DNA of 64,000 bases from Primulina eburnea. Taxonomy: Eukaryota > Streptophyta > Magnoliopsida > Lamiales > Gesneriaceae. Under the pieces are notes generated by a model that was not told the origin of the DNA, did no database searches, and saw only the letters and a program-made list of their open reading frames with translations. This document shows, one piece after another, positions 1 to 56,430 of the stretch (position 1 is its first letter; each line of letters starts with the position of its first letter). Made by a program: the position numbers and the translations under genes. The stretch covers positions 46,890,342-46,954,341 of the forward strand of contig NC_133101.1 in assembly GCF_022965805.1 (NCBI RefSeq), written 5' to 3'.

Positions 1-2
1 GA

Positions 3-1840: not shown

Positions 1841-1876
1841 TTTCGAGGACGAAATTTCTTATATGGGGGGAAGGAT

Positions 1877-4800
1877 TGTAGAACCCGTAAATCAGTCTAC
1901 GTATAAGCCATGCATAATTATAGATTTTTAAATTTAATTGACTTCATTGCATGATTATTTTAAATGCATTTCTTTGAAGTTAATTATTTTATTATTTCAG
2001 TTCAGTAGTTTTATTTTTTAGCATTTCAGTTATTTCAGTGAGGCCGGACCGGAGTTGGAGTTTTGAGATATAATTTAAGATTTGAGAAATATTTCAGGAT
2101 TTAATTTAGCTAGCAAGTAAGTTAATTTAAGTTAAAAAGGAGGTTTGAGGATTTATTTTAATTATTTGAGGTGAGTAGAAAAATTAGTTCATTTAAGTTT
2201 CTTAATTAAGGAATTAGTTCACTAAATTAATTAAAGGATTAGTGAGGTTTTTAAGAGTTATTAATTTACTAGATAAACAACATTTCCCCTTTATTTTATT
2301 ATGCATTTTCGGCCACCCTTAGTTGCTAGAAGATTCAATTGCCAACTCATCACCTTGGACCCCTTCTTGGTATGTAATTAGGAGGATAATTCTTTTCATT
2401 TGGGAGCACCATTAAATTATTAATTAACCTCATTCTAACCTAGACAACCATGCATAAATTCGGCCACCTCATCCCCAAGTAGATTTGATATCAAACAATT
2501 CAATTGCCAACTCACCTTTGACCCTTTCTTGTATTTAATTAGGAAATAATTCTTTGATCTTTCTAGCACCTTTTAATTATCTAATTAGCATTATCCAACC
2601 CTAGTATAGTATGTAGATTTTGGCCACCTCAACCACACTAGCACCAACAAATATTTTTGTAGAAACAAGAATTCAAATTTCAAAAGTTGGAGACCAAGTC
2701 TTGCATTGTTTCCATAAAGTTTGCAACCATTCCCTCCCTCCCATAACCATCACTTCTTCTCCCTCCCCATGACCGAAAAATCAGAGAGCATTTCAGAGGT
2801 AAAAATCGTGAGTCTTAGGTAGAGGAAAGGAAAGAAAAATCGAGTGCAAGGAATAACAAGAGAAGCAACTCCGTCTCCTCCGCGCCGTCTCGTCTCTTCT
2901 TATCGTTTCTATTTCAAACGAATCCCAGGCATGTATATACTTTTTATAAACCTCAATCAAGTCATATTAACATTATTTTCATGATTAATGATCACTATTT
3001 CATGCCAAAATGAAATACATCACAGATTTTTTTAAGGGAACACATGCAGATTTTTTTCGGTTTCCTTGTGCACCTCACGCTTTTCTGAGTTTTGATGGTT
3101 TCAGGTGGATGGCTCGACTCCAGGCTCCCAAGGCGACTCCTAGACACGTAATAGGATGCATTAGGATCGTGTTTGTCCATTCATACAGCCCCCATATTGC
3201 TGAGAATTCAGAATTTGACAGCAACTCCCTTGCTGCCATGTATGCTCTTCGAAATTTCAGATTGTATGTCAAGGGGTTGGATCTGATCTTGGCTGCCCTA
3301 AGGGCTCTTATCCATGGTTGGATCACTCCCCTAGCATGTCTAAGACGTGACTAAGTCGCCCTTTTGGTGGCTTGGTCCATGGCTCATCGGTTTTTAAATA
3401 AAACACCAGAATCGCCCCCTCCCCTCTCGGCCCTCAGTTTTTGACAGCAAGTTTGTTTCGAGTTTGGTGGCTTGGTGTGGATCTTGGTTGGCCTATGGCC
3501 CTTAACCACGGTTCATACCATACCCCAAGATGTCTAGATCGTGCCATGGTCAATTAAATGGCCACTGGAACGACAAGGGATGTCAAACGAAATAGTGCAT
3601 TCCATGCGCGCAGAATTGTGTCTCGGTTGGAATTTCGTGTTTGTTTCTGGTATGGTTCGAATTGTGGCTGGCCAAAATCCCTTAGCCATGATTCAAATCA
3701 CTCCTTGAGATGTTGGTAAGAGTCTCTGGTCGGTGGTTCACGCCCCTAATGGCCGATAGGCTCGAAACCAACGCAAGTCTTGTAGTTGCGCAGCTGATGG
3801 AAAATTACAGCAGGTTGCTGTGTCGTTTAGAAGGCTCGTTTGAGTTCTTGGTTGGCTTTTTGCCTATGGCCTTGGACTGGACAGTGTCCCATTGAGTTAG
3901 AAAGGTCATGTTTTCGACCGTTTGTGATTCGGATCATTTTTGAGGTCGTACGAGAATTTACGGTGTGATGTGCCAAATTGACTCTGGAAAGAGCGTTTCA
4001 TGTTTTGGCCTCCATTTCACCTAGATTTCGACCATCATCATTACAGGTGCATTATTTCGGTATTTAAGCGTATTTTAATCATGACTTTATGTCGGTTCAA
4101 TGTCGGTTCAGGTTGGTTCGGAGTCATGATTAAATGCGAAGTCATTAGGCATCATAGTCGCATCTTTTGAACGTAAATTGCGTAGTTGGTCATGTTTAAG
4201 CTATTGCATATTTTTCATAGCACAGTTAGGTTGCAGCGAGCCTGGGGACGATCCAATCCAATCCAGTTAGTAAAATTACATGATTTTTCATTATGCCAGT
4301 TATTAATATTACGTGCATGAAAACAGAAAATGATTATTTTTGAGATTTATGCGATATGGCTTGTGGTTCATTCACTATGTGGGAGTGTTATTTTATACGG
4401 TCGCCAGTGACCGATCAGTTCAGTATGGTACCACCCGGTCGCCAGTGACCGGCCAGATCAGTTTCAGTTTCAGCCTCCCCGGTAGCCAGTTACCGATCAG
4501 TTTCAGCTTAGTGCAGTGACCACAGGCGTAAAACATAATCTCAACAGCAAATTTTATCAGTTATTTCAGTACAGGGCTTCAAGGAGCAAATATTTTTACT
4601 ATGATTATCAGTTCAGTTATGCACGTATTATAATTGCTCAGTACAGATTATTTTCAGCATGCCTCATGACATGATATTTTATCCCATGCATATTTTACTT
4701 CAGTTTTTACTCGTTACCTGCGATATATGCATGCTGAGTCTTTAGACTCACTAGACTTGATTGTTGTAGGTACTGATGAGGTCAGTGCCGAGGGCGGGGA

Positions 4801-5069
4801 CCAGTGAGCCAGCTTGGGTCGGCAGTAGTGGCACCCGAGGACCTCAGTGCAGCAGTGTTTATTTTATTCCGCAGACAAATTTTTATCAGTCATCGAACAT
4901 TTTTAAATTGTTGTTGTTGGAAAACAATTATTTTATTCCGCTGCTTTTAATTTAAAAATTGAACTTGATTCACCGGTTGATTTTATGAGTAAGGCCATTT
5001 AAGTTCTTTTAAAAAAGAAAATTTTAATTTTCCGTTAATTTTCAAGCGAGGAGTTTTAGGGCCGTTACA
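1877..5069 (+). repeat. Family A middle LTR (3193 bp)
   Basis: It begins TGTAGAACCCG after a polypurine tract (1865-1875) and ends in TTACA two bases before the primer-binding site. It serves as 3' LTR for the partial copy to its left and 5' LTR for the complete copy to its right. The first 1.1 kb matches the right LTR (9998-13195) except for two run-length differences. The remaining 2.1 kb carries about thirty substitutions by eye, so it looks like a hybrid of two LTRs. No long ORF is convincing; an open frame at 3010-3354 is treated under findings. A conserved TGAGTC...GACTCA palindrome lies at 4735-4754. Confidence 0.93.
4398..4495. repeat. Three spaced hairpins in the family A LTR
   Basis: CGGTCGCCAGTGACCG occurs at 4398-4413 and 4437-4452, followed by the variant CGGTAGCCAGTTACCG at 4480-4495. 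Each is an imperfect palindrome able to form a short stem. The cluster recurs in the right LTR near 12523-12620. Degenerate forms (CCGGTAACTGGTGACCGG) are seen in the divergent A' LTRs near 26780-26890 and 29290-29395. Its role is unknown; it lies about 600 bp from the LTR 3' end. Confidence 0.7.
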
Positions 5070-5071
5070 AT

Positions 5072-5083
5072 TGGTATCAGAGC
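5072..5083 (+). other. Primer-binding site, family A
   Basis: TGGTATCAGAGC, two bases after the LTR end, is the usual plant match to the 3' end of initiator tRNA-Met. It primes minus-strand DNA synthesis. Confidence 0.92.
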
Positions 5084-5308
5084 GGTGGTTCTGTATAGGG
5101 TTACACTACTACTGACCGCGAGAAGCTGACGAAGCCACGCCTTCGGTCTGTAAGTTTTACATTTCAGTATTTTATTTAAAGCATGAATTATTTTGACAGC
5201 ATGCTTCCATGAAATAATTTCGACCAGATTTTCAGTATTTCAGTGTTCATTTCAAATAAATTATGGAATTATGCATGTTAGTTACGTACGGGTTATGTAT
5301 GGAACAGT

Positions 5309-6400
5309 ATGCCCCCTAGACGCATTTTAGAGCGCAACAGAGAAGAGGAGCCTCGCCGAGAGGACAGGGAGGAGCGTAGACCGGAGGGAGACCTACCACC
5401 TCCACCACCGCCCCCACCGGACATGAGTGCCCAGATGTTAGCTGGGATGGCACAGTTCTTCGCACAGTTTGCGGGGGGCAATGCCGCAGCCGTAGCCGCA
5501 GCCAGGCCGACAGGGCCCGAGGCTGTTTATGAGAGATTTATGAAAATGCGCCCGAAGGAATTCTCTGGGACGTCCGACCCCACGGTTGCCGAGGGATGGA
5601 TCAAATCTCTCGAGCTCATTTTCGAGTTTATGGAGCTAGGAGACGCAGACCGAGTCCGGTGTGCCACCTATCTGTTCACTGGAGACGCCCGCTTATGGTG
5701 GGAAGGAGCGTCGGTAGCCCTGACTTTGGCTACACTCTCTTGGACCCGCTTTACGGAGGTTTTCTACTCCAAGTATTTTGCTGAGGAGGTTCGCACCAGA
5801 CTGACCACAGAGTTCATGAGCCTGAGGCAGGGGGATATGACGGTTACGGAGTTTATCCGTAAGTTCGAGAGGGGCTGTCACTTTGTGCCCCTGATCGCGA
5901 ATGATGCCAAAGCCAAGCTGATGCACTTCCTGGTGGGTTTACGGCCGATCTTGCGCCGGGATGTTAGGGTATCTGACCCTGCCACTTATGAGATTGCCGT
6001 CTCTGAGGCCTTAGCCGCAGAGCAGGATCTGCGGGATATCGAGAGGGATCGCCAGGGCAAGCGCCCAGTCCAGGCACCGCACCGCCCTCCTCCTCATCAG
6101 CATCAGCAGCAGAACAAGAGGCCTTTTCATGGACCGCCCAAGAACCGAGGCCAGCAGCAGCAGCAGCGGGGACGCACAGCCCCGAGGACTCAGGAGCACC
6201 CAGTCTGTCCCAGGTGCTCCCGTCGCCATCCTGGAGCATGTATGGCTGGCTCAGGAAAGTGTTTTAAGTGTGGCAGTACAGACCACATGTTGCTGCAGTG
6301 CCCTCAGAGAAATCTGCCTACTCAGGGCAGAGTTTTTGCTCTCCATGCCGCAGAAACCAACCCTGAGACCATGTTATTGACAGGTACCTTTAAACTTTAA
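5309..6400 (+). CDS. gag: Family A Gag (363 aa if unspliced)
   Basis: Gag is the nucleocapsid polyprotein that packages the element RNA. The ATG at 5309 is the first long in-frame start after the primer site and follows a 225 bp leader. The N-terminus is charged (Arg/Glu-rich), then has a polyproline run (about residues 30-38). The retrotransposon-gag helical domain spans about residues 70-215, with the conserved W-I-x-x-L-E, LWWEG and RKFERGCHFVP motifs. After a Gln/Pro/Arg-rich linker comes one CCHC zinc knuckle, C-x2-C-x4-H-x4-C, near residue 320. The frame is intact. It stops at 6398-6400, only five codons past a candidate splice donor at 6384. Splicing there would fuse Gag to protease instead. 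This is the best-preserved gag in the window. Confidence 0.9.
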   Translation: MPPRRILERNREEEPRREDREERRPEGDLPPPPPPPPDMSAQMLAGMAQFFAQFAGGNAAAVAAARPTGPEAVYERFMKMRPKEFSGTSDPTVAEGWIKSLELIFEFMELGDADRVRCATYLFTGDARLWWEGASVALTLATLSWTRFTEVFYSKYFAEEVRTRLTTEFMSLRQGDMTVTEFIRKFERGCHFVPLIANDAKAKLMHFLVGLRPILRRDVRVSDPATYEIAVSEALAAEQDLRDIERDRQGKRPVQAPHRPPPHQHQQQNKRPFHGPPKNRGQQQQQRGRTAPRTQEHPVCPRCSRRHPGACMAGSGKCFKCGSTDHMLLQCPQRNLPTQGRVFALHAAETNPETMLLTGTFKL

Positions 6401-6582
6401 GTTATCATTGAATTTCCGTATTTTGGGAATCGGGATTTAGATTTGAACTTAGAATTTCAATAGGGTTGCATGCTCTACTTAGTATTATTTTCGGGACAAT
6501 GTTAGAAAAACTTTGACCTTTGCATGTCTATAAGCTTAGCTCTCGTGATCTTTGGGTTCTGCTTAGTATTTCGAACTTTTAG
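6384..6582 (+). other. Candidate spliceosomal intron at the gag-pol junction
   Basis: A 199 bp segment starts GTACCT after ACAG and ends in a pyrimidine-rich stretch and TTTTAG before GGAGA. It is about 34 percent GC by hand count, clearly more AT-rich than gag before it. It holds stops in the gag frame (from 6398). Removing it joins gag to the protease frame with a split Gly codon (phase 1) and no gap. The related element C has no insertion at the same codon boundary (after 43043). The A' copy keeps the 3' two thirds of the segment, including a CAG acceptor. The boundaries are read directly from sequence; that it is spliced is inference. Confidence 0.72.
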
Positions 6583-9500
6583 GGAGAACTTTCATAGCCG
6601 GCAAAGCTACCAAGGCCTTGATAGATTCAGGGGCCACACACTCGTTCATTTCGGAGATCTTCGCAAACTTTCTGAAGATCAAGACCATTGGGCTAGACAT
6701 AGCCTTTTCAGTAGTGTTTCCGTTAGGCGAGGAGATGGCAGCCACCAATGTTATCCGAGATATAGACCTTGAGCTGCACGGTAAGCTTGTATATGCGGAT
6801 CTGATAGTGCTACCGATGCCAGAATTCGACATCATCCTAGGGTTGGATTGGCTATTGAGGAACAGAGTGTTGATAGACTTCCAGCGGAGATCTGTTCTTG
6901 TCCGACCGCCTGGAATGGAGCAGTTCTTATTTGAGCCGGATAGGTACTTTTCGTTACCGCGCATTATTCCATATGTTCAGGCCAGGAAACTCATGCATAG
7001 AGGGTGTCGGGCATTTCTAGCGACCTTTTATCTGTCCCCGAGGAACCCAGCCAGTCAGTCTCAGATGTTCCGATTGTCAGAGATTTCCCAGACGTTTTTC
7101 CCGAGGACGTCTCTGGTATGCCACCTGAGAGAGAGGTGGAGTTTTCCATTGAGCTTATGCCAGGTACGGCTCCGATATCCAAAGAGCCGTACCGACTAGC
7201 ACCGACAGAGATGGCAGAGCTTAAAAAGCAGATTCAGGAACTTCTCGACAAGGAGTTCATTCGCCCGAGCTTTTCACCATGGGGCGCGCCAGTCTTGTTT
7301 GTTAAGAAGAAGGATGGCTCTATGAGGCTTTGCATTGACTACCGGGAGTTGAACAGGGTTACAGTTAAGAACAAATACCCACTGCCGAGGACTGAGGATC
7401 TGTTTGACCAGTTGCAGGGAGCTTCGATTTTCTCTAAGATAGATCTGCGTTCTGGTTATCATCAGTTGAGGGTGAGAGATGCAGATGTCTCGAAGACAGC
7501 TTTCAGGACTCGTTATGGTCACTACGAGTTCCTTGTGATGCCGTTCGGTCTGACGAATGCGCCAGCGATCTTCATGGATCTCATGAATCACGTATTTCAG
7601 CCGTACCTCGACCAGTTTGTGATAGTGTTCATAGATGACATTCTCGTCTACTCCAAGAGTCGGGAGGAGCACAGCAGGCATCTGACTACAGTGTTGCAGA
7701 CATTGCAGAAGCACAAATTATTTGCAAAGTTCAGTAAGTGCGAATTCTGGTTAGAGAAGGTGGCGTTCTTGGGCCACATCGTCTCCAGCAGTGGTATTGA
7801 GGTAGACCCCGCAAATGTTGCAGCAGTCAGAGATTGGGTTGTGCCTCAGAATGCATCCGAGATCCGCAGTTTTCTTGGGCTGGCAGGATATTACAGGAAG
7901 TTCATTCAGGGATTCTCATACATTGCCGTTCCACTCACAGCACTGACCAAGAAGAATGTGAAATTTGTTTGGAGTGAGGAGTGTCAGAAGAGCTTCGATA
8001 CTTTGAAGCAAGCTCTTATCTCAGCACCCGTTTTGGTCGTACCGTGAGGATCTGGTAAGTTTGTCCTTTATACCGATGCTTCGAAGCTTGGTTTAGGTGC
8101 AGTTTTGATGCAGCATGGGAGAGTGATAGCGTATGCTTCTCGACAGCTGAAAATCCACGAGAAGAACTACCCCACCCATGATCTAGAGTTAGCGGCCGTA
8201 GTTTTTGCCTTGAAGATTTGGAGGCATTATCTGTATGGAGAGAAGTGCCAGATCTTTACCGACCACAAGAGCCTCAAGTATTTCTTTACGCAGAAGGAGC
8301 TGAACATGCGTCAGAGGCGTTGGTTGGAGCTTGTGAAAGACTACGATTGTGACATTAGCTACCACCCGGGTAAAGCTAATGTAGTTGCGGATGCTTTGAG
8401 CAGGAAAGTCGCAGTGATGGCTCATTTGACGATGCAGAAACCTCTTCAGATTGAGATGCAGAGGTTCGATCTTGAGACTTATCCTCGAGGTAGAGTTCCT
8501 CGTCTATCTACCTTGACCATTCAGTCTTCTCTTTTGGACCGTATTCGCAGTGGTCATGCCGCAGATGAGCAGTTGGTACAGTGGAAGAAGAGAGATGAAT
8601 CCAAGGGCAGTGTTTTGTATTCAGTCAGCGACGGTATTGTGAGATACCGAGATAGGATATGGGTTCCTAGCAGTGATTCTATCCGAGCAGACATCTTATC
8701 GGAGGCCCATATGTCCCCGTACTCCATTCACCCTGGGAGTAGGAAGATGTACAAGGATCTGCAGCTATTGTATTGGTGGCCGGGTATGAAGAAGGACATT
8801 CGACGGTTTGTGTCCGAGTGTCTGACCTGTCAGTTAGTGAAGGCCGAGCATCAGAGACCAGCAGGTTTGCTCAAGCCTCTTCCTATTCCTGAGTGGAAGT
8901 GGGAGAACGTCACCATGGATTTTGTGACCGGTTTGCCGAGGTCAGCCAGAGGATCGAATGCCATATGGGTGATTGTAGATCTTCTTACCAAATCAGCGCA
9001 CTTCTTGCCTATTAAGACGACATTCACCATGATTCAGTATGCAGAGCTGTATATCCGAGAGATAGTCCGACTACATGGCATTCCAGTTTCTATCGTATCT
9101 GACAGAGATCCCATATTCACTTCCTCATTTTGGAAGAGTTTGCATTCGACTTTGGGTACGAAGTTGCTGTTTAGCACAGCCTTTCATCCGCAGACAGAAG
9201 GGCAGTCGGAGCGAGTTATTCAGATTTTGGAGGATCTTCTCCGCGCTTGCGTCATTGATTTCTCAGGGATTTGGGAGTCGAACTTGCCACTGGTTGAGTT
9301 CACTTATAACAACAGCTTCCAGTCTTCTATTGGTATGGCTCCGTATGAAGCGCTGTATGGCCGCAAGTGTAGATCTCATGTTCATTGGGATGAAGTAGGA
9401 GAGACAGCAGAGTTAGGTCCAGAGATTGTTCAGCAGGCAGCAGAGGTAGTAGTCAAGATCCGTGATAGGATGAGGACTGCTCAGAGCTGACAGAAGAGTT

Positions 9501-9961
9501 ATGCCGATCAGCGGAGGAGAGATTTAGAGTTTGCAGTGGGCGATCATGTCTTTGTGAAAGTGGCACCTATGAAGGGTGTCATGAGGTTTGGCAAGAAAGG
9601 GAAGCTCAGTCCGAGATTCATTGGACCGTTTGAGATCCTCGACAGAGTTGGGACGCTAGCTTATCGTGTGGCTCTTCCGCCGAATCTGGCCGGAGTACAC
9701 AATGTCTTTAACGTCTCCATGCTGAGGAAGTATATGGCGAATCCTTCGCATGTGCTGAATTTCGAGCCGTTGCAGCTTACTCCGAACCTATCTTATGAGG
9801 AGAGACCAGTGCAGATCCTAGACAGACAGGAGAAGAAGCTTCGGAACAAGCTTGTTAAGCGAGTCAAAGTCAAATGGCTCAACCATTCTGAGGAGGAAGC
9901 TACGTGGGAGTCTGAGCCGGAGATGAGAGAGCGTTACCCCGAGTTATTCGGTGAGTTCTAA
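6583..9961 (+). pseudogene. pol: Family A copy 2 pol (PR-RT-RNaseH-IN-chromodomain), one frameshift and two stops
   Basis: Pol cuts the polyprotein, copies RNA to DNA and inserts it. Domains in order: aspartic protease (LIDSGATHSF, near 6618), reverse transcriptase with the FIDD catalytic box (near 7632), RNase H, integrase with HHCC and complete D-D-E residues, then the SH3/chromodomain tail ending at TAA 9959-9961. Three lesions break it: a one-base deletion near 7030 between protease and RT (compare A'), TGA at 8045-8047, where A' has a serine codon, and TGA at 9488-9490, shared with copy 1. Otherwise one frame stays open from about 7004 to 9961. Joined to gag through the candidate intron, it would have been a single Gag-Pol frame. 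Recently inactivated. Confidence 0.93.
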
Positions 9962-9985
9962 TTTCGAGGACGAAATTTCTTATAT

Positions 9986-9996
9986 GGGGGGAAGGA
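9986..9996 (+). other. Polypurine tract, family A
   Basis: GGGGGGAAGGA immediately before the 3' LTR is the expected plus-strand primer. The same tract precedes the middle LTR at 1865-1875. Confidence 0.88.
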
Positions 9997-9997
9997 T

Positions 9998-12900
9998 TGT
10001 AGAACCCGTAAATCAGTCTACGTATAAGCCATGCATAATTATAGATTTTTAAAATTTAATTGACTTCATTGCATGATTATTTTAAATGCATTTCTTTGAA
10101 GTTAATTATTTTATTATTTCAGTTCAGTAGTTTTATTTTTTTAGCATTTCAGTTATTTCAGTGAGGCCGGACCGGAGTTGGAGTTTTGAGATATAATTTA
10201 AGATTTGAGAAATATTTCAGGATTTAATTTAGCTAGCAAGTAAGTTAATTTAAGTTAAAAAGGAGGTTTGAGGATTTATTTTAATTATTTGAGGTGAGTA
10301 GAAAAATTAGTTCATTTAAGTTTCTTAATTAAGGAATTAGTTCACTAAATTAATTAAAGGATTAGTGAGGTTTTTAAGAGTTATTAATTTACTAGATAAA
10401 CAACATTTCCCCTTTATTTTATTATGCATTTTCGGCCACCCTTAGTTGCTAGAAGATTCAATTGCCAACTCATCACCTTGGACCCCTTCTTGGTATGTAA
10501 TTAGGAGGATAATTCTTTTCATTTGGGAGCACCATTAAATTATTAATTAACCTCATTCTAACCTAGACAACCATGCATAAATTCGGCCACCTCATCCCCA
10601 AGTAGATTTGATATCAAACAATTCAATTGCCAACTCACCTTTGACCCTTTCTTGTATTTAATTAGGAAATAATTCTTTGATCTTTCTAGCACCTTTTAAT
10701 TATCTAATTAGCATTATCCAACCCTAGTATAGTATGTAGATTTTGGCCACCTCAACCACACTAGCACCAACAAATATTTTTGTAGAAACAAGAATTCAAA
10801 TTTCAAAAGTTGGAGACCAAGTCTTGCATTGTTTCCATAAAGTTTGCAACCATTCCCTCCCTCCCATAACCATCACTTCTTCTCCCTCCCCATGACCGAA
10901 AAATCAGAGAGCATTTCAGAGGTAAAAATCGTGAGTCTTAGGTAGAGGAAAGGAAAGAAAAATCGAGTGCAAGGAATAACAAGAGAAGCAACTCCGTCTC
11001 CTCCGCGCCGTCTCGTCTCTTCTTATCGTTTCTATTTCAAACGAATCCCAGGCATGTATATACTTTTTATAAACCTCAATCAAGTCATATTAACATTATT
11101 TTCATGATTAATGATCACTATTTCATGCCAAAAACGAAATACATCACAGATTTTTTTTAAGGGAACACATGCAGATTTTTTTCGGTTTCCTTGTGCACCT
11201 CACGCTTTTCTGAGTTTTGATGGTTTCAGGTGGATGGCTCGACTCCAGGCTTCCAAGGCGACTCCTAGACACGTAATAGGATGCATTAGGATCGTGTTTG
11301 TCCATTCATACAGCCCCCATATTGCTGAGAATTCAGAATTTGACAGCAACTCCCTTGCTGCCATGTATGCTCTTCGAAATTTCAGATTGTATGTCAAGGG
11401 GTTGGATCTGATCTTGGCTGCCCTAAGGGCTCTTATCCATGGTTGGATCACTCCCCTAGCATGTCTAAGACGTGACTAAGTCGCCCTTTTGGTGGCTTGG
11501 TCCATGGCTCATCGGTTTTTAAATAAAACACCAGAATTGCCCCCTCCCCTCTCGGCCCTCAGTTTTTGACAGCAAGTTTGTTTCGAGTTTGGTGGCTTGG
11601 TGTGGATCTTGGTTGGCCTATGGCCCTTAACCACGGTTCATACCATACCCCAAGATGTCTAGATCGTGCCATGGTCAATTAAATGGCCACTGGAACGACA
11701 AGGGATGTCAAACGAAATAGTGCATTCCATGCGCGCAGAATTGTGTCTCGGTTGGAATTTCGTGTTTGTTTCTGGTATGGTTCGAATTGTGGCTGGCCAA
11801 AATCCCTTAGCCATGATTCAAATCACTCCTTGAGATGTTGGTAAGAGTCTCTGGTCGGTGGTTCACGCCCCTAATGGCCGATAGGCTCGAAACCAACGCA
11901 AGTCTTGTAGTTGCGCAGCTGATGGAAAATTACAGCAGGTTGCTGTGTCGTTTAGAAGGCTCGTTTGAGTTCTTGGTTGGCTTTTAGCCTATGGCCTTGG
12001 ACTGGAAAGTGCCCCATTGAGTTAGGAAGGTCATGTTTTCGACCGTTCGTGATTCGAATCATTTTTGAGGTCGTACGAGAATTTACGGTGCGATGTGCCA
12101 AATTGACTCTCGAAAGAGCGTTTCATGTTTTGGCCTCCATTTCACCTAGATTTCGACCATCATCATTATATGTGCATTATTTCGGTATTTTAAGCGTATT
12201 TTAATCATGACTTTATGTTGGTTCAGTGACGGTTCTGGTTGGTTCGGAGTCATGATTAAATGCGAAGTCATTAGGCATCATAGTCGCATCTTTTGAACGT
12301 AAATTGCGTAGTTGGTCATGTTTAAGCTATTGCATATTTTTCATAGCACAGTTAGGTTGCAGCGAGCCTGGGGACGATCCAATCCAATCCAGTTGGTAAA
12401 ATTACAGGATTTTTCATTATGCCAGTTAATTATATTACGTGCATGAAAACAGAAAATGATTATTTTTGAGATTTATGCGATATGGCTTGTGGTTCATTCA
12501 CTATGTGGGAGTGTTATTTTATACGGTCGCCAGTCACCGATCAGTTCAGTATGGTACCACCCGGTCGCCAGTGACCGGCTAGATCAGTTTCAGTTTCAGC
12601 CTCCCCGGTAGCCAGTTACCGATCAGTTTCAGCTTAGTGCAGTGACCACAGGCGTAAAACATAATCTCAACAGCAAATTTTATCAGTTATTTCAGTACAG
12701 GGCTCCAAGGAGCAAATATTTTTACTATGATTATCAGTTCAGTTATGCACGTATTATAATTGCTCAGTACAGATTATTTTCAGCATGCCTCATGACATGA
12801 TATTTTATCCCATGCATATTTTACTTCAGTTTTTACTCGTTACCTGCGATATATGCATGCTGAGTCTTTAGACTCACTAGACTTGATTGTTGTAGGTACT

Positions 12901-13195
12901 GATGAGGTCAGGGCCGAGGGCGGGGACCAGTGAGCCAGCTTGGGTCGGCAGTAGTGGCACCCGAGGACCTCAGTGCAGCAGTGTTTATTTTATTCCGCAA
13001 ACAAATTTTTATCAGTCATCGAACATTTTTAAATTGTTGTTGTTGGAAAACAATTATTTTATTCCGCTGCTTTTATTTTAAACATTGAACTTGATTCACC
13101 GGTTGATTTTATGAGTAAGGCCATTTAAGTTCTTTTAAAAAAGAAAATTTTTAATTTTCCGTTAATTTTCAAGCGAGGATTTTCGGGTCATTACA
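9998..13195 (+). repeat. Family A right LTR (3198 bp)
   Basis: It runs from TGTAGAACCCG to TCATTACA. It is near-identical to 1877-about 3005 in its first 1.1 kb, then about 1.5 percent different by eye. The conserved TGAGTC...GACTCA palindrome is at 12861-12880. The element sits in a reversed family C LTR that resumes at 13196. Confidence 0.92.
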
Positions 13196-14743
13196 GTACT
13201 GACCAAGCCTGACATAAGGAACCACCCCTAACTCACCCACGAACCCTACACAAGGACCCGAGCTGCGCGAGAGCTTCCCACCTTCACTAGGACTCCTAAT
13301 CAATCTATGAGACCATTAGCTACCTATCCAACGGTCACCTATGACCCTAACCAACTCTTGACAAGTCTCAGACCCAACCAAGCTAGCCATGAGTCCCCTG
13401 GTCCCCGCTGCAGCCGCTATATCTAAACAAGAGCAGCCACACAAGTTACTTCTTCATGTTTTTCTCGAGACATCATTGAGCCACCCTTCACCCGTCCTTG
13501 ACCCAAACCTTACCATCCTCCCTAGGCCCTACTGGACCAACCCTGAACCGTCCAACCTTAGCCGCGAGCCCCCTTGGCTGTTGTTAACTTACCCGAGCAT
13601 GGGGAAGAGTCCCTCTTTGCGTGGACTCTTCCCAAGCTTTTGAAATTGAGTCCTATCATGGCTAGGACTCTTCCTGGCCCCAGTACACGACCCTGGAGAA
13701 GCCTCCAACCAGCCTTGACTGAGCTTTAAGCCTCCATGCTCATAGCCGCACCCCTGTGAAGCTATGCATGCGTGTGGCTTCTTAGAAACCCTAGGCGATT
13801 TCAATCCCTTCCCTCCTTCGATTCCAGCATGTATTTGATCCTTAACTACTCTTTTCACATCCCTAAAAACATCTCCTAATGGCAGTGTGTCCTTAGGAAT
13901 CATAGCGTTTTTTAAACAAGCGTAAAATCGTCATATTTTGAAAAAAAATTTCTACCGTAAAAATAATCGAACACATGTTTTTCATGCATAAATGATTAAT
14001 ACATGGATATTATGATTTGAATGATGTTTCAAAAGAGTTTAGTAACATGCCTTTACGTTTAAAACGCTCTAATACGTGATCGTCGGCGAGAAAGAACGAA
14101 CGGGTGACGAAGAACCCTAGATTTTACTCCTTGAAGATTTTCTAATTTTGTGTGTGCAAGTGTGTGAAATTTTGGCTGATACAAGCTCTCAAAAGACCTA
14201 TGATTTCATTTTTATAGATTTAATTGTGCATGATAATGGGCTTAGGTTTTGAGCTTCAAAGTATAGGAGCAATTGGCCTACTCAATTTAGTTAAATTGAG
14301 TTCAATAGCTATTATTTAATTGTAAAGTAAAAGTTTACAAACATTAATTTCCGAAAATAATATTTTTGATCTTTTATAAACTTCTCGTTTGCCTAAAACC
14401 GGCTTCTTGGTAAAATCGAACTCGTCTCGAAAAATAATTCGAATTCTAAAATTTTTAGAAAAATTTAATCATTTTAATCGTATTAAGAAGCCTCGAAAAT
14501 ATTTAGTGAACAATATTTAGTTTTGTCTTGGTCGTCCTCGGTCTCCTTTCTCCAGCCTATTATCGAATATTCAGATAAAATACTTCATTTTCATAAAATG
14601 ATGTCATATAATCATGTAATCATGCAATCATATATTTAATCCCAAAATATGCATCAAGTAAGCATTAATTTAATAAAACAATTAAGCAATTCAAATAATT
14701 TGTTTGCATGTGGTTTACGTAGGTTGGTTTTTCGGACGTTACG
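13196..14743 (-). repeat. Family C-type LTR fragment, reversed
   Basis: Read on the minus strand from 14743, it starts like the family C LTR at 39070 (TAACGTCC, then ACCTACGTAAACCAC) and later matches the CCCTAG...GTCGCC segment near 39675-39700 and the 39720-39770 region. It is cut at 13195 by the family A array. The terminal base is changed, so the LTR end is decayed. ORFs such as 13389-13643 are chance frames in this repeat. Confidence 0.78.
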
Positions 14744-17038: not shown

Positions 17039-19538
17039 TGAAACATCCACTACTTGTTTTTATTTAAAATGTACTAGAATATTTTTTTTCTTTCATCTAA
17101 GCTCTTCGGCCGAATATATAAACCTATATATTATTAATATACATTGCACCATTTAAAAATAAACCAACCAACCTATTTTTTGAAAATCCAAAAGAACATA
17201 GCGCAAAACGTAAAATCGTAAACCAATCCTAAAACTATCATTTTTCAAAATAAAGAATAAGCATCTTAAATCCTTTCAAAATCACTCACAAGCATCTTAA
17301 GTCATATAATCTTTAAAGTAATTTTAATGCAGAAAACTAGCGAAGATCCTCAGGTTATGTGCACCATTAGCCCAGCTAGTTTAACCATCAAGTCCTCCAT
17401 CATCAACCAGATCATGCTCACCTGCATTAATCACACGTAGTGAGTCTATTGACTCAGCAAACATTAACCATTATAACAAGTAATACATATATATTCATAA
17501 GAAACAATGAAAGATACTTTTAATAAAATAGCTTTTCATGGACATGCATAACTTTAAATCCATTTTCCTTTTATTATATAAGTATACGTTTCTTTTGTAT
17601 TTAATTCGGATAATTAATTATGACTTTCGTATCAGCTGTAGGTCGATGGATCCATCTATGTATAACCATGGTACTAGGCGGCGGGGACATCAGCAACACT
17701 CTCACCCGTCAACTGAGCCTTGGCCTTAAATATCATCATATCATCCTATTTGTCACAATCAAGTTACCTCCTTAAACCTTTCAATATTTTCATCACTTAT
17801 AAAAATTCATGCATATATATATCATTTTTCTTTTAAACCAATCATGTAACTCATTTTTTAGCATTATCGTTTTTCATCATAAAATTCAATAAACTTTCAA
17901 AAAAAACATTTTATCATTCATTACAGCATTCAGGTCACTATCGGGACTTCTAAAATTTTTAGGTAATAAAATGACCATTTTGCCCCTGGACCTTAACTTT
18001 CCCAACTTACCTTGGACCTTAAAATGACGATCCGTATCCATCCAAACATAAGATAACATCTTTAAATACACCCATAAACATTTCTTAGACGTAAACTTAA
18101 GCTCCTCGACTAATTTATCAATTTGTTTTAAAACTTAAACGTGTGTCCCTGTTTTAACCCGAATCAACTCAAAACTTAACCAAAATTTACCAAATTTGAA
18201 CCATAGCTTATTAACACCTAGCCATACACTATACAACCCAAATAAAACAATTTACAACCCTTGAACAAGCATAGAACGTTGCTGGAAATTCTTCAAGATT
18301 TTGAAGAAACCCTGGCTTGACAAACCTTCAATTCCTTCGACCCTGGCCCATGGCCGAACCAACCAGGGCCTAGCTGACCTTGATAGGACCCTAACCAAAT
18401 CCTTAGACCCTACTGGACCAGCCCTACAACAGCTAGCACTTGCAACCATCAAGTCGTGCACTTCAAGCTTGCGCGACCCAACCTAGAGCCCCATGCCCTA
18501 GCCATTGCACCAGACATACCTTAGCCTATCTAGGACCATGAATCGACCCCTAGGGATCTCTGGATGTGACTTAACAGTAGCCCACACCCTGACCCTTCAA
18601 GCCATCAAAAACCGAAACCTAGTCGTGTTAAAGCCCAAATTTTCGTTCAGCATGTTGCCCTACCTTGTACAGCCCTTAGCCATGCCCCTATAGACCCTTA
18701 AACATACTGAAAAACGCCCCTTCCCATAAACCTATCATAGCAGCCCCTTTGTGTATCATAAACATGAATTTAAAAACATAAAACACAAGTTTTGTCCATG
18801 TTTTGCCCTATAAACAAAAATAAAAGAAAGTGAATCATGTTTTCACGCACACATGTATTAACACATATAATACGGAACGAACGATGAGTGAAGGAAGATT
18901 AAGGAGTGCCTTTGCGTATTTCACGCACGAAAAAAAAATCATTGACGCGAGGGACGTTGGCGGAGAAACGGGGGAGGAAGCTTGGTGCGTTTCCTTCAAA
19001 TTGATGTGAATTTGCTTCAAAAACGTGGGTGTGTGTTTGTGTGTTGTGAAGGAGGTGTGGGAAGAGAAAAACCTAGGTTTATTGTGTTATATGAAGTGTT
19101 TTATGGTTTAAAAACTCCCTAATTTGATACAAATAATTGGGTAGGAGTTTAGGCCCAAGAACCTTTTTATAATAGGTCCATTAGGTAAAATATTTCGTTT
19201 AGAAAGTTTTCGAAAATATTATCCGAGCTCCCAAAAAGTCTTATTTTCGTCAAAAATCTATTACCGGTTTAAAATACGACTTGACGCATAAAAACGTCTC
19301 AAAAAACACCATTTTCGAAAATATCATATAAAATATACCATATATTAAATAATTAAAAATAATCATATAAAAATATTTTCTCTTTATGGTCTCCGCTCTT
19401 CTTTCCTCGATCGCGTCTCGAATAACCCTTAAAAGCATAGTTTTATCATCCTAGTAGAATTAAAATAATTTAATTAGGCATTTTTCATTTTTCCTAGATT
19501 TGCATTCAGTTGGATTACGTTATCACTTTATGGTCCCT
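17039..19538 (-). repeat. Family D-like LTR, reversed (about 2.5 kb)
   Basis: It ends (minus strand) in GTTTCA before a primer site. Its length matches the family D LTR at 47619-50131. It shares with that LTR the TGAGTC...GACTCA palindrome (17441-17456) and the segment about keeping or losing TCATTTT-rich runs near 17965-17990. Its first few bases are cut by element B at 19539. No gene is supported inside; the short ORFs are chance. Confidence 0.68.
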
Positions 19539-26207: not shown

Positions 26208-29200
26208 TATAAAGGCCTAAAAATCCTTACTTAGAAAATTTGCGGTAAATTTAAAATTTTTCTTTTAAAATAAATGGAGTGCCTCATTCATACAAAAAAC
26301 TGATAAAATGTTTAACGTTCAAAATAGCAGCGGAAAAAATTATTACTTGCCAAAATAACAAGTTAAAGTATTCAACAACTGATAAAATATTTGAGCATAA
26401 AAAAAATAGCAAGTGCTGAAACTGAGGTCCTCGGGTACCAGTACTGCCGACCCAAGCTAGCTCACTGGTTCCCGCCCTCGATCCCGACATCATCAGTACC
26501 TACAACAATCAAGTCTAGTGAGTCTAAAGACTCAACATGCATATATCGTAAATAACGAGTAAATAATATAGTAAAATTTGCATGGGATAAAAATATTATG
26601 TCATGAGGCAAACGTGAAAATAACTTGTCATGAGCAATTATAATACGTGCATAACTAAACTGAAAAATCATAGTCAAAATGTTTGCTCCTTGGAGCCCTG
26701 TACTAAAATAGCTTGTAATAATTTTCTGGTGAGATTATGGTCTACGCAAGTGGTCCCTGAACTGAACTAAACTGAGCTGACCGATACTGGGGACCGGACC
26801 GATAACTGGTGACCGGATTTACGTCTGATCAGACTACTTTCACATTATATTGGGTGAAACAACTGAATTGACCGGTAACTGGTGACCGGATTTAATATTG
26901 ATAGTAAAGTGACCACAAGCAATATCGCATAAATCTCAAAATTTGTATTTTTCTTTGCACGTAATATAATTAATAACCGAATTAAATATCCTGTACTAAT
27001 TTTACTGAATGGATTGGATCGCTCCCAGGCTCGCTGCAACCTAAATATGCCATGAAAAATATGCAACAGCTTTTACTTGACCAAACTATGCAATTAAATC
27101 CAAAACTGAGACAAGTGCGCCTCCAACTTCGTATTTAATCATGACTCCGTGCCAACCCGAAACAACACCGAACCATCAAGTAGTCATGATTAAAATACGC
27201 CTAAAATGATGAAACAATGCTCCTAAAATAGTTAGGGTCGAAATCTAGGTGAATGGAGGCCAAAACATGAAACGCTCTTTCGAGAGTCAATTTGGCACAT
27301 CACACCGTAAATTCTCATAGGACCTCAAAAATGATCTGAATCACGAACTGGTAAAAAACATGGCCTTCCTAAATCAATGAGGCACCGTCCAGTCCAAGGC
27401 TATAGGCTAAAAGCCAACCAAGAACTCGAACGAGCCCCTGAACCATCACAGCAAGTTGTTATCCACAAAATATAGCAACTGTGCTTAGGTTTCTTGCGTC
27501 GTTTTCGAGACTACCGGCCATTGGGGCTTGAGCCACCGACTAGAGACTCTTACCAACATCCCAAGGAATGATTTGAACCATGGATATGGGCCCTAGACCA
27601 GCCACAATTTGCACCACACCAGCACCAATCCGAAACGTTCACTCGAGAGCACCGTTGCATGCGCGTGAGGTGTTTTGCTTTGATTGCTGTCTCGAGTCGT
27701 CCAGTGGCCATTTGATTGACCATGGCACGATCTAGACATCTTGGGTATGGTATGAACCGTGGCTAAGGACCATAGGCCAACCAAGATCCACACCATTCCA
27801 CCAAAATTTCGAATACACATGCTGTACAAGTGAGAAGCCGAAATGGGGAAGGGGTTGTTCTTGCGTTTTTAATTAAAAACCGATTAACCATGGACCTAGC
27901 CACCAAAAGGGCGACTTAGTCACATCATAGACATGCTAGGGAAGTGATCTAAACATGGCTATAGGCCTTGTGGCAGCCATGATTAGATTCATTCCCTATA
28001 TGACAGCAACACAGAATTTCGAAAAGCTCAATTGGACAAGAGGTGGAGTTGCTGTCATTTTCGTGTTTTCCAGCGTGCATGGGATTAAATGAATGGACCA
28101 ACATGCTCCTAATGCATCCTATTACATGTCTAGATGTCGCCTTAGGAGCCTGGAATCGAGCCAATACCTAAAATCCACAAAACAAAGCAAACCGTGAAAC
28201 TGCATAATGAAAGTCGAAATCTGCATGTCTGTTTTCTGAAAATTTCTGATGTATTTCGGTTTTTGCCACAGAAATAATGATCATGCAATGAAAATAAATG
28301 ATATTATGACTTGATTGAAGAGTCATGGAAGAATATATGCATGCCTGGTTTCGTTTGAAAGAAAAACGAAAGAATGATACGATTCGGCGCGGATGAGGTG
28401 GAGCGCTTTCTTTTCTACCTTTATTCTTACTCGATTTGTCTCTCTTGTTTCCTACTGAATTCTCACGGTTTTTAGCTCTGAATTTCTCTCAGATTTCGAG
28501 CAAGGGAGGGGAATGATGGTTAGGAGAGTGAGGGAAATGGTTGCAAGATATAGGGAACAAATCAAGACCAAGTCCCCACCTTTTAAATTTTGAATTTTTG
28601 GTTTGATATCAAATGATTTGTTGGTGTTTGTTGGGGGGTGAAGTGGCTGATTATACCTGATAATCAAGGCTAGGGTAGTGATCTAGCATTGATTAATTAA
28701 GGTGGATAAACTATAAAGGCCTAAAAATCCTTACTTGAAAATTTACGGGAAATTTAAAATTTTATTTTAAAATAAATGGAGTGCCTCATTCATACCAAAA
28801 ACTGATAAAATGTTTAACGTTCAAAATAGCAGCGGAAGAAATTAATACTTGCCAAAATAACAAGTTAAATTATTCAACAACTGATAAAATATTTGAGCAT
28901 CAAAAATAAAATGGCAAGTGCTGAAACTGAGGTCTTCAGGTGCCACTACTACCGACCCAAGCTAGCTCACTGGTCCCCGCCCTCGATCCCGACATCATCA
29001 GTACCTACAACAATCAAGTCTAGTGAGTCTAAGCACTCAACATGCATATATCGTAAATAACGAGTAAATAAATAATAAAGTTTTGCATGTGAGTAAAAAT
29101 ATCATGTCATGAGGCATAATGTAAAGTATCGTGTCAAGATTAATTATAATACGTGCATAGCTGAACTGAAAATCATAGTGAAACTGATTGCTCCTTAGAG

Positions 29201-35613: not shown

Positions 35614-35781
35614 CTGAAAGTTCGGAACACTAAGCTGACCCCAAATAATCACAAGAGTTAAACTTATAGGCATGCAAAGGTCACAATTCTTCTATCTTAA
35701 TCCCACAAATAATACTGAGTAGAGCATGCAATCCTATCGCAATTCTAAGTTTAAAATCTAAATCCCGATTCCCAAAACATT
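35614..35781 (-). other. Remnant of the gag-pol intron-like segment in A'
   Basis: On the minus strand it matches the 3' two thirds of 6384-6582 (shared GGGAATCGGGATTTAG) and ends in TTTCAG before the protease exon. Its 5' part, with the end of gag, was removed by a deletion. Confidence 0.7.
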
Positions 35782-39069: not shown

Positions 39070-41819
39070 TGTAACGTCCAAAACCAACCTACGTAAACCA
39101 CATCCATGAAAAGGAATTAAATTACATAATTGTTTTAGTTAATTGATTTTAAATGCTTAGATGATGCATATTATATGATTAAAGATATGATTGCATGATT
39201 AAATGATTATATGGTATGATCTCATGAAATTGAAGGATATCACCCGAATATTCGATAATAAGATGGGGAAAAGAAACCAGGGACGACCAAGACAACATAA
39301 ATATTTTTCATAAATATTTTCATGGCTCATTAATATGATTAAAAATGATAGAGTTCAAGTTATTTTACGAAGGGAGCTCAATTTTATCCGGGAAGCCGGT
39401 TTTGGGCAAACAAGTGACTTTTAAAATATCAAATGCATTATTTTTTGAAACTAATGTTTATACACTTTTATTTTTCAATTAAATAGGTGTTACTAAGCCC
39501 AATTTAACTAATTTGAGTAGGCCCAATTGCTCTTATACTTGAAGGAGCAAAACCTAAGCCCATTATCATACAAATTAATCTATAAAACTAAAAACCAAGG
39601 GCTTTTGCACCCCATACAGCTGACACCAGCACACACAACACACACTAAATTTCTAAAATAAAGAGGAGGAAAGGCTAGGGTTCTTCGTCGCCCATTCGTT
39701 CTTTTTCGTGTCCCTCGCCAACGATCGTATATTCGAGCGTTTTAAAACACAAATGCACGTTTTCTAAACCCTTTGACGCATCATCCAAACTATTACATGC
39801 ATGTTATATGTATTTTTGCATGAAAAATATTTATGCTTGATTTATTTTACGATGGAACGAATATTTCAAAGATTTTGGCGATTTTTCACATGTTATATAA
39901 ACGTTATGATTTCCAAGGGATAATCTGCCAACTTGGGACATTTTACGGATAGAACAAGGACAATTTAAGGTGGAAACAAGGCTGGAAATAGAGCTTCTCT
40001 AGGAGGAGGAGTCCTAGGGTTTTTTCTAAAACTACATGATGCAAGGGTTCGGTTAGAAGGGTGGCGCACCGAGGGCTCGGCTAGGGCCGGTCTGGGGCTT
40101 GGCATGGGTCATGGTTCAGGGTTAGGAAAGGTCCTAGCCATGGTTAGCTGGTAGGGAAGAGTCCATGATTGCACTGAATCTTCTGTGTGCGCACGATCCA
40201 GGGCTGGGGAGGCGGTGTTCGGCTAGGCTAGGGTGGTCTATGCTGGTCCAGTAGGGTTTAGGAAAGGAGGCTAAGGGTTGGGACTAGGTCCTGTGAAATG
40301 GTGGTCTGAGTTGGCTTGGGGAAGCTTGGGCAGCGATCGTGGGTGATAGAAGGGAACTTGCGCGGCTGGCTACAGGCGTTAGGGGCTAGGTGTGCGGGTC
40401 AAGGGTGATCCATGAGGTCTAGGGTCAGGTCTGGATCGAGGTGGCTTGGTGATGGCTCGATCGAATCGGGAAGTGGCTCGAAGCAACCAAGATATGGTTC
40501 GAATTCACAAGTTTAATGGTGAAGGGCGCGAACCATGGTCCATGGGGGTCGGTTAATGTTTCACGAGGGTTTTAAGGTATAAAAAGCCTATGTTTAAAAT
40601 TTGGGAATATAATATTAAAGTTTGAATTAATTCGGGAATAACACTTCACGAAAAAGTAATTAAAAAATTAAATCGAAATCCTCAAATTTACATCAAATAA
40701 AAATGTCTAAAATTTAATTTAAGCTTAATAATTATTTAGGATGGTCTAGAATCAATAAAAGAAAGAAAAAAAGTCAAAATCGAGAAATTACCTCTAGGGG
40801 CAAAACGGTCATTTTACACCTGGGTAGTACGATAAATGTTGGCAGCGCTCGAAGGGTCATAACGCATGATAAATGAGACAAAATGATGATTTTGATGAAA
40901 ATATGAAATTTTATGATTTATGGTAAAAATGTGAAATTTTTACTGTGAAAATGGTATTTGTGGAAAGCCATGATATTTTATGATTTAAAAACGAAAAAAA
41001 AAATATTTTGAAAGATATGAATTGACTGTGACAAAGAGGATAGAGGATATGTGGGGGATCGATTTTAAGAAGGAACAGTGAACTTATAATTTTATTAGAA
41101 TATCGTGAGGGAAAAAGCCCCAGAGCGAGCTCGTTTACGGGACAAGGCTCCAAAGAGAACCCGACGATCGTATTTCCATATTTTGTGGAGGTGTATAGTG
41201 CTCTTCCTCATGCGCAATTGTGATCTAAGACTGATCAGTCAACCAGAGGATAACAGGCTAGTCACTTTCAAGCATCAAACTTCACCCAAAAGGATAAATG
41301 ATAGACAGCTTTTCAATTTTGCGATTTTACGATTTATGATGTATTTATGATTACAAGCTTATTTTAAATAAAAGTATGGTTTAAATCATGTGCTTGTATA
41401 TGTATTATTTGCTACTCATGATTAGGACGTGCTGAGTCATTAGACTCACTAGGTTCGAATGCTGCAGGTGATGATGATATTGAGGGAAGCACTGACGCTT
41501 GAATGGATCGAGTACGACAGTACATTCCCAAGAGACTTTATTTTCCGCACTAGATCGATAGACAAAGTTTAAAGGATTTTTGTTAAGGATTTTATTAGAG
41601 ATTTTATGCTTTATTTTGAAGTTAACTTTGATCACGTTAAAGGTAGAAGTCGAATTTTGGTAATTGATAATTTTAGGGATTTTATACACGTGATATTTAA
41701 ATTGTTAAATTATTTTGAATTATGGAAATATTAAGTTATTTTTAATTGCGGGTTTTCGAATTAATGGATAAAAAAATTTAGTAGAATTTTTAAGATAAAA
41801 TTTAGAAGGCGACGTTTCA
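39070..41819 (+). repeat. Element C 5' LTR (2750 bp)
   Basis: TGTAACGTCCAAAACC to GACGTTTCA. Contains the TGAGTC...GACTCA palindrome at 41433-41452 followed by TTATTTTCCGCAC. No ORF is convincing. Confidence 0.87.
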
Positions 41820-42987: not shown

Positions 42988-43043
42988 AAGGGCATATGTG
43001 ATGCATGCTGAGCAAGCGAAGCCAGACACTACGCCTATTACAG

Positions 43044-56172: not shown

Positions 56173-56430
56173 CATGGTTCGCCGGAACGGTTGCGGTGCT
56201 TGGAACGGCAACGACCGTTCCAGTTCCAATGTTATGTTGCGGAACGGTTGCGGAACAGTTGTATAAAAAAATTAATAAATTCAAAAAATTGATAAAAAAT
56301 TTAAATATAAATTACATCATACTAAAAAATAAAATATATGAAGTTATTACAAATTAATATATCAATACAAAACTATTTTACAATAATAGCACAATAAGAA
56401 ATACACACAAAAAATTATAACATAACAAAG

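What the first reader, a model, noticed from the sequence alone, without database searches (positions are those of the whole stretch)
6384..6582. A spliceosomal intron appears to separate gag from protease in family A
Seen: gag runs to a stop at 6398-6400, and protease starts in another frame at about 6590. A 199 bp AT-rich segment between them has ACAG/GTACCT at one end and TTTTAG/GG at the other. Removing it joins the two frames exactly, inside one Gly codon. Related element C is collinear across the site with no insert (43043/43044), and A' keeps the acceptor half (35614-35781). Known: Ogre-type Ty3/gypsy elements carry an intron inside their polyprotein region; I recall none at the gag-protease boundary of a Tekay-like chromovirus. 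Inference: unspliced RNA would be the packaged genome and make Gag alone, and spliced RNA would make Gag-Pol, so splicing efficiency would set the Gag:Pol ratio.
Basis: partly seen in the sequence, partly recalled or inferred. Interest (0 to 1): 0.88.

Follow-up and report, generated by a model that had tools for sequence, protein, structure and literature searches.

The report
Spliced gag intron in plant chromoviruses
A common family of jumping genes in this plant carries a real, removable intron between its shell-protein gene and its enzyme genes, and genomic copies that have lost exactly this piece show that it gets spliced out, which offers a switch between making shell protein and making enzymes.

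Summary
In 30 copies GT is kept 30/30 and AG 28/30; the insert lacks the codon periodicity of both flanks and is T-rich. Decisive: 26 of 26 sequenced insert-free copies join the exons at the predicted place with no base gained or lost, and intron state changes 9 times on a tree that leaves the junction out (at least 5 forced by well-supported branches). So spliced RNA has been reverse-transcribed. The intron is not peculiar to family A: families with about 47% gag identity carry one at the same Gly codon (11 of 14 junctions measured, 329-679 bp; one further copy precisely intronless). Best model: one 5' splice site; the proximal 3' site makes Gag-Pol; no splicing, or distal splicing, makes Gag. 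Proximal splicing is close to certain; distal splicing and ratio control are inferred. No RNA was seen.

The parts
5309..6383 (+). gag exon 1 (Retrotrans_gag, Ty3_capsid; CCHC zinc finger), ending in the first base of a Gly codon
   Evidence: open frame 5282-6400; Pfam PF03732 and PF19259
6384..6582 (+). the intron: GTACCT...TTTTAG, 199 bp; if retained, gag stops a few codons into it (TG-TFKL-stop)
6463..6491 (+). box inside the intron (GGGTTGCATGCTCTACTTAGTATTATTTT); best match lies 80-104 nt from the donor in the 19 introns compared
   Evidence: the box was taken from A; above the shuffle maximum in 7 of 7 near relatives and in 4 of 11 distant introns, at or below it but at the same distance from the donor in the other 7
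6583..6998 (+). exon 2: start of protease (RVP_2, DSGATHSFIS)
7001..9961 (+). rest of pol (RT, RNase H, integrase zinc-binding domain, SH3 and chromodomain); in this copy broken by a frame change and two in-frame stops
2504..5062 (+). upstream LTR (about 2.56 kb, ends approximate)
4735..4769 (+). LTR acceptor block TGAGTC-N4-GACTCA-CTAG...TTGTTGTAG; inside the most conserved 60-column stretch of the LTR (4719-4778)
4770..4807 (+). short LTR exon in phase with the gag donor: G-TDEVSAEGGDQ-stop
10627..13197 (+). downstream LTR
12896..12933 (+). the same LTR exon downstream of this element's donor (acceptor AG 12894-12895): G-TDEVRAEGGDQ-stop
5071..5083 (+). primer binding site TTGGTATCAGAGC (initiator-Met tRNA type, recalled)
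35614..35781 (-). A': acceptor half of the intron; gag end and donor deleted
43030..43060 (+). C element: gag/protease boundary without intron (43043/43044)
41433..41502 (+). C element LTR: same acceptor block and tail G-DDDIEGSTDA-stop, 353 bp before a PBS-like site with 2 mismatches
17381..17456 (-). LTR of another element: same block, tail G-EHDLVDDGGLDG-stop, about 0.4 kb before its PBS
49818..49893 (+). LTR of another element: same block (acceptor AAG), tail G-EHVDEGTRGAEF-stop
28967..29039 (-). A'-type LTR: same block, tail G-TDDVGIEGGDQ-stop
26462..26534 (-). second A'-type LTR: same block, tail G-TDDVGIEGGNQ-stop

Best explanation
Tekay-like chromoviruses of this plant carry an old spliceosomal intron at the gag/protease boundary. 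A single 5' splice site at the end of gag (..T-G|GTA) is the switch. (1) Not used: the RNA stays full length, makes Gag ending a few residues into the intron, and is the usual packaged genome (inferred; the intron is kept in most of the copies seen). (2) Joined to the nearby acceptor (6582): the RNA reads through as Gag-Pol (splicing shown by genomic footprints; translation inferred). (3) Probably also joined to an acceptor in the 3' LTR: a short RNA coding for Gag plus a 10-17-residue acidic tail (inferred from LTR conservation and annotated models). Splicing, rather than ribosomal frameshifting, would set the Gag:Pol ratio. Spliced RNA is sometimes copied back, which yields precise intronless copies. 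Confidence: proximal intron spliced in vivo about 0.96; the whole three-RNA scheme about 0.6.
For: Canonical sites, T-rich body, exact frame join; of 8 nearby GT-AG pairs that join the frames only this one restores the T-G|R order of intronless relatives. GT 30/30, AG 28/30, and no codon periodicity inside against strong periodicity on both sides. Precise losses: the six longest-frame copies of 121 all lack the insert with zero bases between the exons. A natural intronless query found 26 places matching end to end and 14 split at the intron (40 scored of 1743 candidates). 26 of 26 sequenced junctions have no base gained or lost. All 20 genome places listed within 2 mismatches of the joined junction read as joined; backwards-pattern control 0. 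On an IQ-TREE of downstream sequence only (47 rows, 14 intronless) intron state changes 9 times, at least 5 forced by starred branches. One intronless copy (C11) has both LTRs and a PBS. Depth: 11 of 14 junctions of P0122-like families (gag 62-100% identical to P0122; A is 47%) have introns of 329-679 bp at the same codon and phase; one more is precisely intronless. Intron parts align between families. Distal acceptor: the block is in 7 LTR copies of the window; it lies in the top-conserved 60 columns of the LTR, 0.93 against 0.63; AG is kept in 14 of 14 LTR sites found in 20 stretches; the annotated tails of P0003 and P0122 are encoded exactly there.
Against: No RNA or protein data. Two of 30 copies lack AG; one of nine measured P0003-type copies too. 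Of 14 P0122-family junctions, L113 and L119 gave no acceptor match, and the script looked for GGTAA[C/G] and AG|GGA.., so those 11 do not test GT/AG independently. C's donor position reads ACAG|GA, not GT. The tree's bootstrap had not settled and 23 of 44 inner branches are open. For the distal splice: no genomic copy of the product with up to 3 mismatches; a 60-column window centred on the acceptor scores 0.88, matched or beaten by 5% of LTR windows; the block sits next to a TATA-like stretch, so promoter function could also explain it; gene models may be predictions. In print: the one Ty3/gypsy GAG RNA found in triticale had no intron (PMC7765848, passage), and a 2025 review says plant LTR elements generally lack introns (PMC12786077, passage).
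Confidence: 0.8

Rival explanations
1. Real intron, but the LTR acceptor is not used. The conserved LTR block is the core promoter and RNA start, and the acidic tails are annotation by-products. Only unspliced (Gag) and proximally spliced (Gag-Pol) RNAs exist.
For: A TATA-like stretch lies just upstream of the block and the palindrome TGAGTC-N4-GACTCA looks like a factor site (reading recalled). No genomic copy of the distal product.
Against: A scan of 1131 NAGG sites for short acidic stop-ended tails, blind to the motif, gave 11 hits, of which 9 lie at this block in 6 LTR copies (several are nested readings of one exon; the script's strict motif flagged 7); the reversed-sequence control gave 3 of 1266 (the acidity limits were set after the first tails had been seen). 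Annotated models in Primulina, Henckelia and Zingiber join gag at the same residue to acidic tails, and the two that were checked are encoded exactly at the block.
Confidence: 0.27
2. Intron presence was gained once or a few times; intronless copies are an old intron-free lineage, and recombination between co-packaged RNAs moved the two states about, so splicing need not have removed anything repeatedly.
For: Template switching is expected for such elements (general knowledge). One intronless group (ISGSATKAL type) has many copies. C lacks the intron. The tree uses only sequence downstream of the junction.
Against: Intronless copies resemble their own subfamily on both sides of the junction over the short flanks seen. 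They occur beside introned ones in distant families (L121 in the NLVI family; L070 and L071 in the P0003 and A' groups). Introns of distant families share sequence and stand in one place, so the intron is old. Even one intronless origin by exact removal needs splicing.
Confidence: 0.08
3. Not an intron: a chance insertion or frameshift in a degenerate copy, or a frameshift/readthrough signal between gag and pro.
For: This copy has a broken pol, and GT and AG are common dinucleotides: 7 other GT-AG pairs nearby also join the frames.
Against: None of the 7 gives the collinear T-G|R join seen in intronless relatives. Conservation in 30 copies, exact removal in many copies, and the same position in distant families.
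Confidence: 0.02

Closest known systems
Ogre (Ty3/gypsy, Tat lineage) intron
   Same: A partially spliced intron between two polyprotein ORFs; splicing of a subset of transcripts allows the full polyprotein (PMC6317226, section 13 read; primary papers Neumann 2003 and Steinbauerova 2008 not read, the latter not held).
   Different: [quoted passage not shown] here it lies between gag and protease in a chromodomain element, and a second acceptor lies in the LTR.
BARE1 (Ty1/copia) spliced Gag RNA
   Same: A T-rich facultative intron next to the end of gag, used to separate Gag-only from polyprotein RNA (PMC3735527, abstract and section 11 read).
   Different: In BARE1 the 104-nt splice breaks the frame and gives Gag only; here the proximal splice opens Gag-Pol and retention gives Gag. 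A different superfamily.
EVADE/ATCOPIA93 shGAG (Ty1/copia)
   Same: Alternative splicing after gag gives a short RNA that makes Gag (passages of PMC12786077 and PMC7730604 read; Oberlin 2017 not held).
   Different: Copia element; the splice removes the protease domain and ends in an early stop, not in the LTR (PMC12786077 passage); premature termination there is recalled.
Described plant chromoviruses, e.g. those of Beta vulgaris
   Same: Ty3/gypsy elements with a chromodomain at the end of integrase.
   Different: Described as one continuous gag-pol ORF (PMC3605345, passages read); the 2019 survey says most groups have a single ORF and names only Bianca and Ogre as having ORFs separated by a spacer (PMC6317226, sections 9 and 13 read; its additional files not seen).

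Membership tests
spliceosomal (U2-type) intron | GT...AG ends conserved across copies | tested here: met
   30/30 GT, 28/30 AG; P0003 type 9/9 GT, 8/9 AG. In distant families 11 of 14 junctions fit, but there GT and AG were part of the search rule
spliceosomal (U2-type) intron | removal joins an open coding frame | tested here: met
   T-G|R join; natural intronless copies read through the junction
spliceosomal (U2-type) intron | removed from RNA in vivo | tested here: met
   indirect: exact loss in retro-copies of several subfamilies; no RNA seen
chromovirus (Ty3/gypsy with chromodomain) | gag-pro-RT-RH-INT order with C-terminal chromodomain | tested here: met
   Pfam PF03732, PF08284, PF00078, PF17917, PF17921, PF00385 above cut-off; the integrase core family was not among the hits shown
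Tekay/Del clade of chromoviruses | RT/INT phylogeny groups with Tekay references | not tested
   no reference set aligned; the clade name comes from the finding and from recall (PBS type, LTR length)
Ogre | intron between protease and RT | tested here: not met
   the intron lies before protease
Ogre | no chromodomain; second RNase H | tested here: not met
   chromodomain present; a second RNase H was not looked for beyond Pfam
Gag-only spliced RNA (shGAG-like) | splice from the end of gag to a downstream acceptor giving Gag plus early stop | tested here: inconclusive
   LTR acceptor, phase, stop and two annotated models fit; no RNA; no genomic copy

The most novel reading that the evidence does not exclude
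An old splicing programme in abundant plant chromoviruses: one 5' splice site at the end of gag and two competing 3' splice sites, one just before protease (Gag-Pol) and one in the 3' LTR (Gag with an acidic tail). Full-length unspliced RNA is kept as genome, as in retroviruses. Annotated proteins from Henckelia and Zingiber with the same join and similar tails suggest that it predates the monocot-eudicot split.
Probability: 0.5. Interest if true: 0.87.

Novelty: new variant of a known kind. Interest (0 to 1): 0.74.

Why it matters
How plant Ty3/gypsy elements make far more Gag than Pol from what is usually described as one ORF is an open question. A conserved intron at the gag/protease border, with genomic footprints of its removal, makes splicing a directly testable answer for an abundant lineage. 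It may also explain why gene sets of such genomes hold many short gag-only models, and it means that surveys which demand one continuous gag-pol ORF could miscall intact elements as broken (both inferences).

Tried and rejected
Chance: 7 other GT-AG pairs join the two frames, none at the collinear place (the first version of this script was off by one base at the acceptor, missed the pair in question, and is not used). Family-A-only intron: rejected. Reading C as proof of recent gain in A: rejected, since the intron is shared by families as distant as 47% gag identity; C may be an intron loss or an old intron-free line, not resolved. Genomic copies of the distal splice product: none. IMG/VR relatives: 25 stretches matched a pattern, none encoded a relative. 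LTR exon as chance: judged unlikely. The element at 50.1-50.8 kb (-) has protease without gag next to it; its upstream part looks like LTR sequence to me and was not used. Rows dropped: L009 is the window copy itself; L013, L020, L023, L027, L028, L031, L062, L068 and L074 had too little sequence for the tree; L001-L008 repeat places of L009-L016 and were not counted. Selections: LTR stretches were fetched for 20 of the 30 copies, long-frame copies for 6 of 121, junctions for 14 of 110, intronless junctions for 20 of 26.

Full report
What is there. The window lies in an 812-Mb plant genome. Element A (LTRs about 2504-5062 and 10627-13197; PBS 5071-5083) is a chromodomain Ty3/gypsy element. Its gag frame ends at 6400 and its protease frame opens at 6567. 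The 199 bp 6384-6582 start GTACCT after ACAG and end TTTTAG before GG. The clade name Tekay was not tested by a tree.

The insert behaves as an intron. It is 41% T and 34% GC against 23-25% T and 48-54% GC in the flanking 200 bases; a plant intron is expected to be about 15% richer in U (PMC3735527, section 11 read). In 30 genomic copies (29 fetched plus the window copy) GT is kept in 30, AG in 28, and the base before AG is C in 27. Mean divergence by codon position is 0.022/0.010/0.055 before, 0.027/0.032/0.037 inside and 0.018/0.013/0.047 after: the flanks were selected as coding, the insert was not. If retained, gag stops after T-F-K-L in 28 of 30. Eight nearby GT-AG pairs join the two frames; only 6384/6582 restores the T-G|R order of intronless relatives (which replaces the faulty).

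Genomic footprints of splicing. A protein search with an annotated gag (P0003) scored 121 of 33,861 candidate places. I fetched the six with the longest open frame (488-956 aa). All six lack the insert, with no base between the exons. Of ten other places returned by the same search, nine could be measured: 201-205 bp in eight and 1362 bp in one, GT in nine and AG in eight. A natural 262-bp intronless stretch as query gave 40 scored places of 1743 candidates: 26 match end to end and 14 are split at the intron. I fetched 20 of the 26 and already held three; with three more, 26 of 26 sequenced junctions have no base gained or lost there (a few carry a substitution next to the join, e.g. L071, L073, L089, L093, L094). 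The 24-base junction pattern gave 140 places with 3 mismatches allowed, control 0; all 20 with at most 2 mismatches read as joined junctions, while many of the 3-mismatch places listed are the intron acceptor of introned copies (the listing is cut). A tree of sequence downstream of the junction only (47 rows, 14 intronless) needs 9 changes of intron state, at least 5 forced by starred branches; its bootstrap had not settled. A FastTree of 918 bp with five intronless copies also scatters them. The intronless copy on C11 has a 5' LTR with PBS and a 3' LTR, 94% alike over 794 bp; for a second intronless copy (C1) the 5' LTR and PBS were found, but no 3' LTR in the stretch fetched. So spliced RNA entered the normal LTR replication cycle. 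Template switching between co-packaged RNAs may have multiplied the apparent number of events, but exact removal needs splicing at least once.

The intron is old. A search with P0122, a gag only 47% identical to that of A, scored 110 places of 34,376 candidates, at 62-100% identity to P0122. In 109 the open frame is 284-421 aa, as expected if gag ends near the boundary, though several of these copies are cut or hold stops; one has 657 aa. Of 14 junctions fetched, 11 have a measurable intron (329-679 bp; two of them identical) at the same Gly codon and phase, donors CTG, CCG, CGG or CAG|GTAAC and acceptors such as TCGCAG or ACCGCAG|GGAGGAT; the script searched for these letters. Two gave no acceptor match; the long-frame one is precisely intronless. 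Parts of A's intron align with those of distant families, and a box around TGCATG[CT]TCTAC, taken from A, has its best match 80-104 nt from the donor in all 19 introns compared. Its score is above the shuffle maximum in 7 of 7 near relatives and in 4 of 11 distant ones, and at or below it but at the same place in 7. One ancestral intron is the simplest reading. Why C lacks it (intron loss or old absence) is open.

A second acceptor. Of 183 database proteins from two searches (best 120 of each listed), 66 show the gag boundary: 31 run into protease, 28 end in short tails, 7 do something else. Some tails are intron read-through (TFKL, ILNL, NLVI); others are acidic (TDDVGTEGEDQ, EYVEEETGGGDQGAGLD, EHVEQETGGAEL, EYVEEQVTPTGGEDV, ENGIDDIGDFDA and similar; Primulina, Henckelia, Zingiber). 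The acidic tails of P0003 and P0122, the two checked, are encoded in an LTR about 6.5 and 5.9 kb downstream, right after an AG, in phase with the gag donor. The same block, TGAGTC-N4-GACTCA-CTA...[CT]AG|GT (TGAGTG in one copy, AAG|GT in another), stands in seven LTR copies of the window from at least four kinds of element, 0.3-0.4 kb before the PBS in the three where I found one. It lies in the best-conserved 60 columns of the LTR between A and A' (0.93 against 0.63 overall); the window centred on the acceptor scores 0.88, matched or beaten by 5% of windows. In 20 downstream stretches of A copies, 14 held the site: AG in 14, stop codon in 13. A scan blind to the motif, with limits set after the first tails had been seen, found 11 acidic stop-ended tails after 1131 NAGG sites, 9 of them at this block in six LTR copies; reversed sequence gave 3 of 1266. 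I infer a Gag-only spliced RNA. No RNA was seen, the models may be predictions, promoter function could explain part of the conservation, and no genomic copy of the product was found, which I would expect if such RNA lacks signals for copying.

How it most likely works. One donor, three fates: retained (genome and Gag), proximal acceptor (Gag-Pol), distal LTR acceptor (Gag with acidic tail). Shown: intron structure, conservation, splicing footprints, presence in distant families, LTR acceptor with in-phase tail. Inferred: translation products, ratio control, use of the distal site.

What is known. Ogre has an intron between protease and RT; Copia elements BARE1 and EVADE make a spliced Gag RNA (PMC6317226 sections 9 and 13; PMC3735527 abstract and section 11; passages of PMC12786077, PMC7730604, PMC7765848, PMC1142308, PMC9289625). 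Against generality, the one Ty3/gypsy GAG RNA seen in triticale had no intron (PMC7765848, passage), and Tekay elements were absent from the expressed set of sunflower (PMC7730604, passage). The 2019 survey says most groups have one ORF and names only Bianca and Ogre as having separated ORFs; Beta chromoviruses are described as one ORF (PMC3605345, passages). Seven searches of the open-access library showed me no report of a gag/protease intron in a chromovirus; I read listings and the passages named, not all hits, and subscription papers and the survey's additional files were not seen.

Verdict. The feature is broader and older than proposed and has a likely second acceptor. It is a new variant of a known kind (spliced LTR retrotransposons), in a lineage that the papers seen describe, or imply, as having one ORF.

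Noticed in passing
1-13197, and C1:46880271-46897101 of the genome: Element A is a tandem: at least three internal regions 8.13-8.14 kb apart sharing LTRs, about 99% alike; two of the gag/protease junctions lie upstream of the window start. Another pair lies on C17 about 8 kb apart.
   Followed up: partly
26208-31192 (-): Two A'-type LTRs, 84% alike, stand directly next to each other.
   Followed up: no
6463-6491 and equivalents in other families: A short box (TGCATG[CT]TCTAC) at a similar distance from the donor in introns of distant families; function unknown (splicing or packaging signal?).
   Followed up: partly
L073, L082, L085-L089, L091-L095: An intronless subgroup (ISGSATKAL-type protease start) with many copies: a lineage without the intron seems to have spread.
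   Followed up: partly
LTR acceptor blocks, e.g. 4735-4750: A 16-bp palindrome TGAGTC-N4-GACTCA sits just before the LTR acceptor in the seven LTR copies seen (one with a change); it may be a promoter factor site near the RNA start.
   Followed up: no
50101-50800 (-): Protease/RT stretch of a C-like element whose upstream neighbour looks like LTR-type sequence instead of gag.
   Followed up: no
56173-57832: Direct duplication of about 0.83 kb, 97% alike.
   Followed up: no
P0025, P0026, P0045 (Zingiber officinale), P0034, P0039, P0046 (unnamed short contigs): Gag proteins from ginger and from unnamed contigs end at the same residue with intron-like or acidic tails, which hints at the same arrangement in a monocot; DNA not available.
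   Followed up: partly
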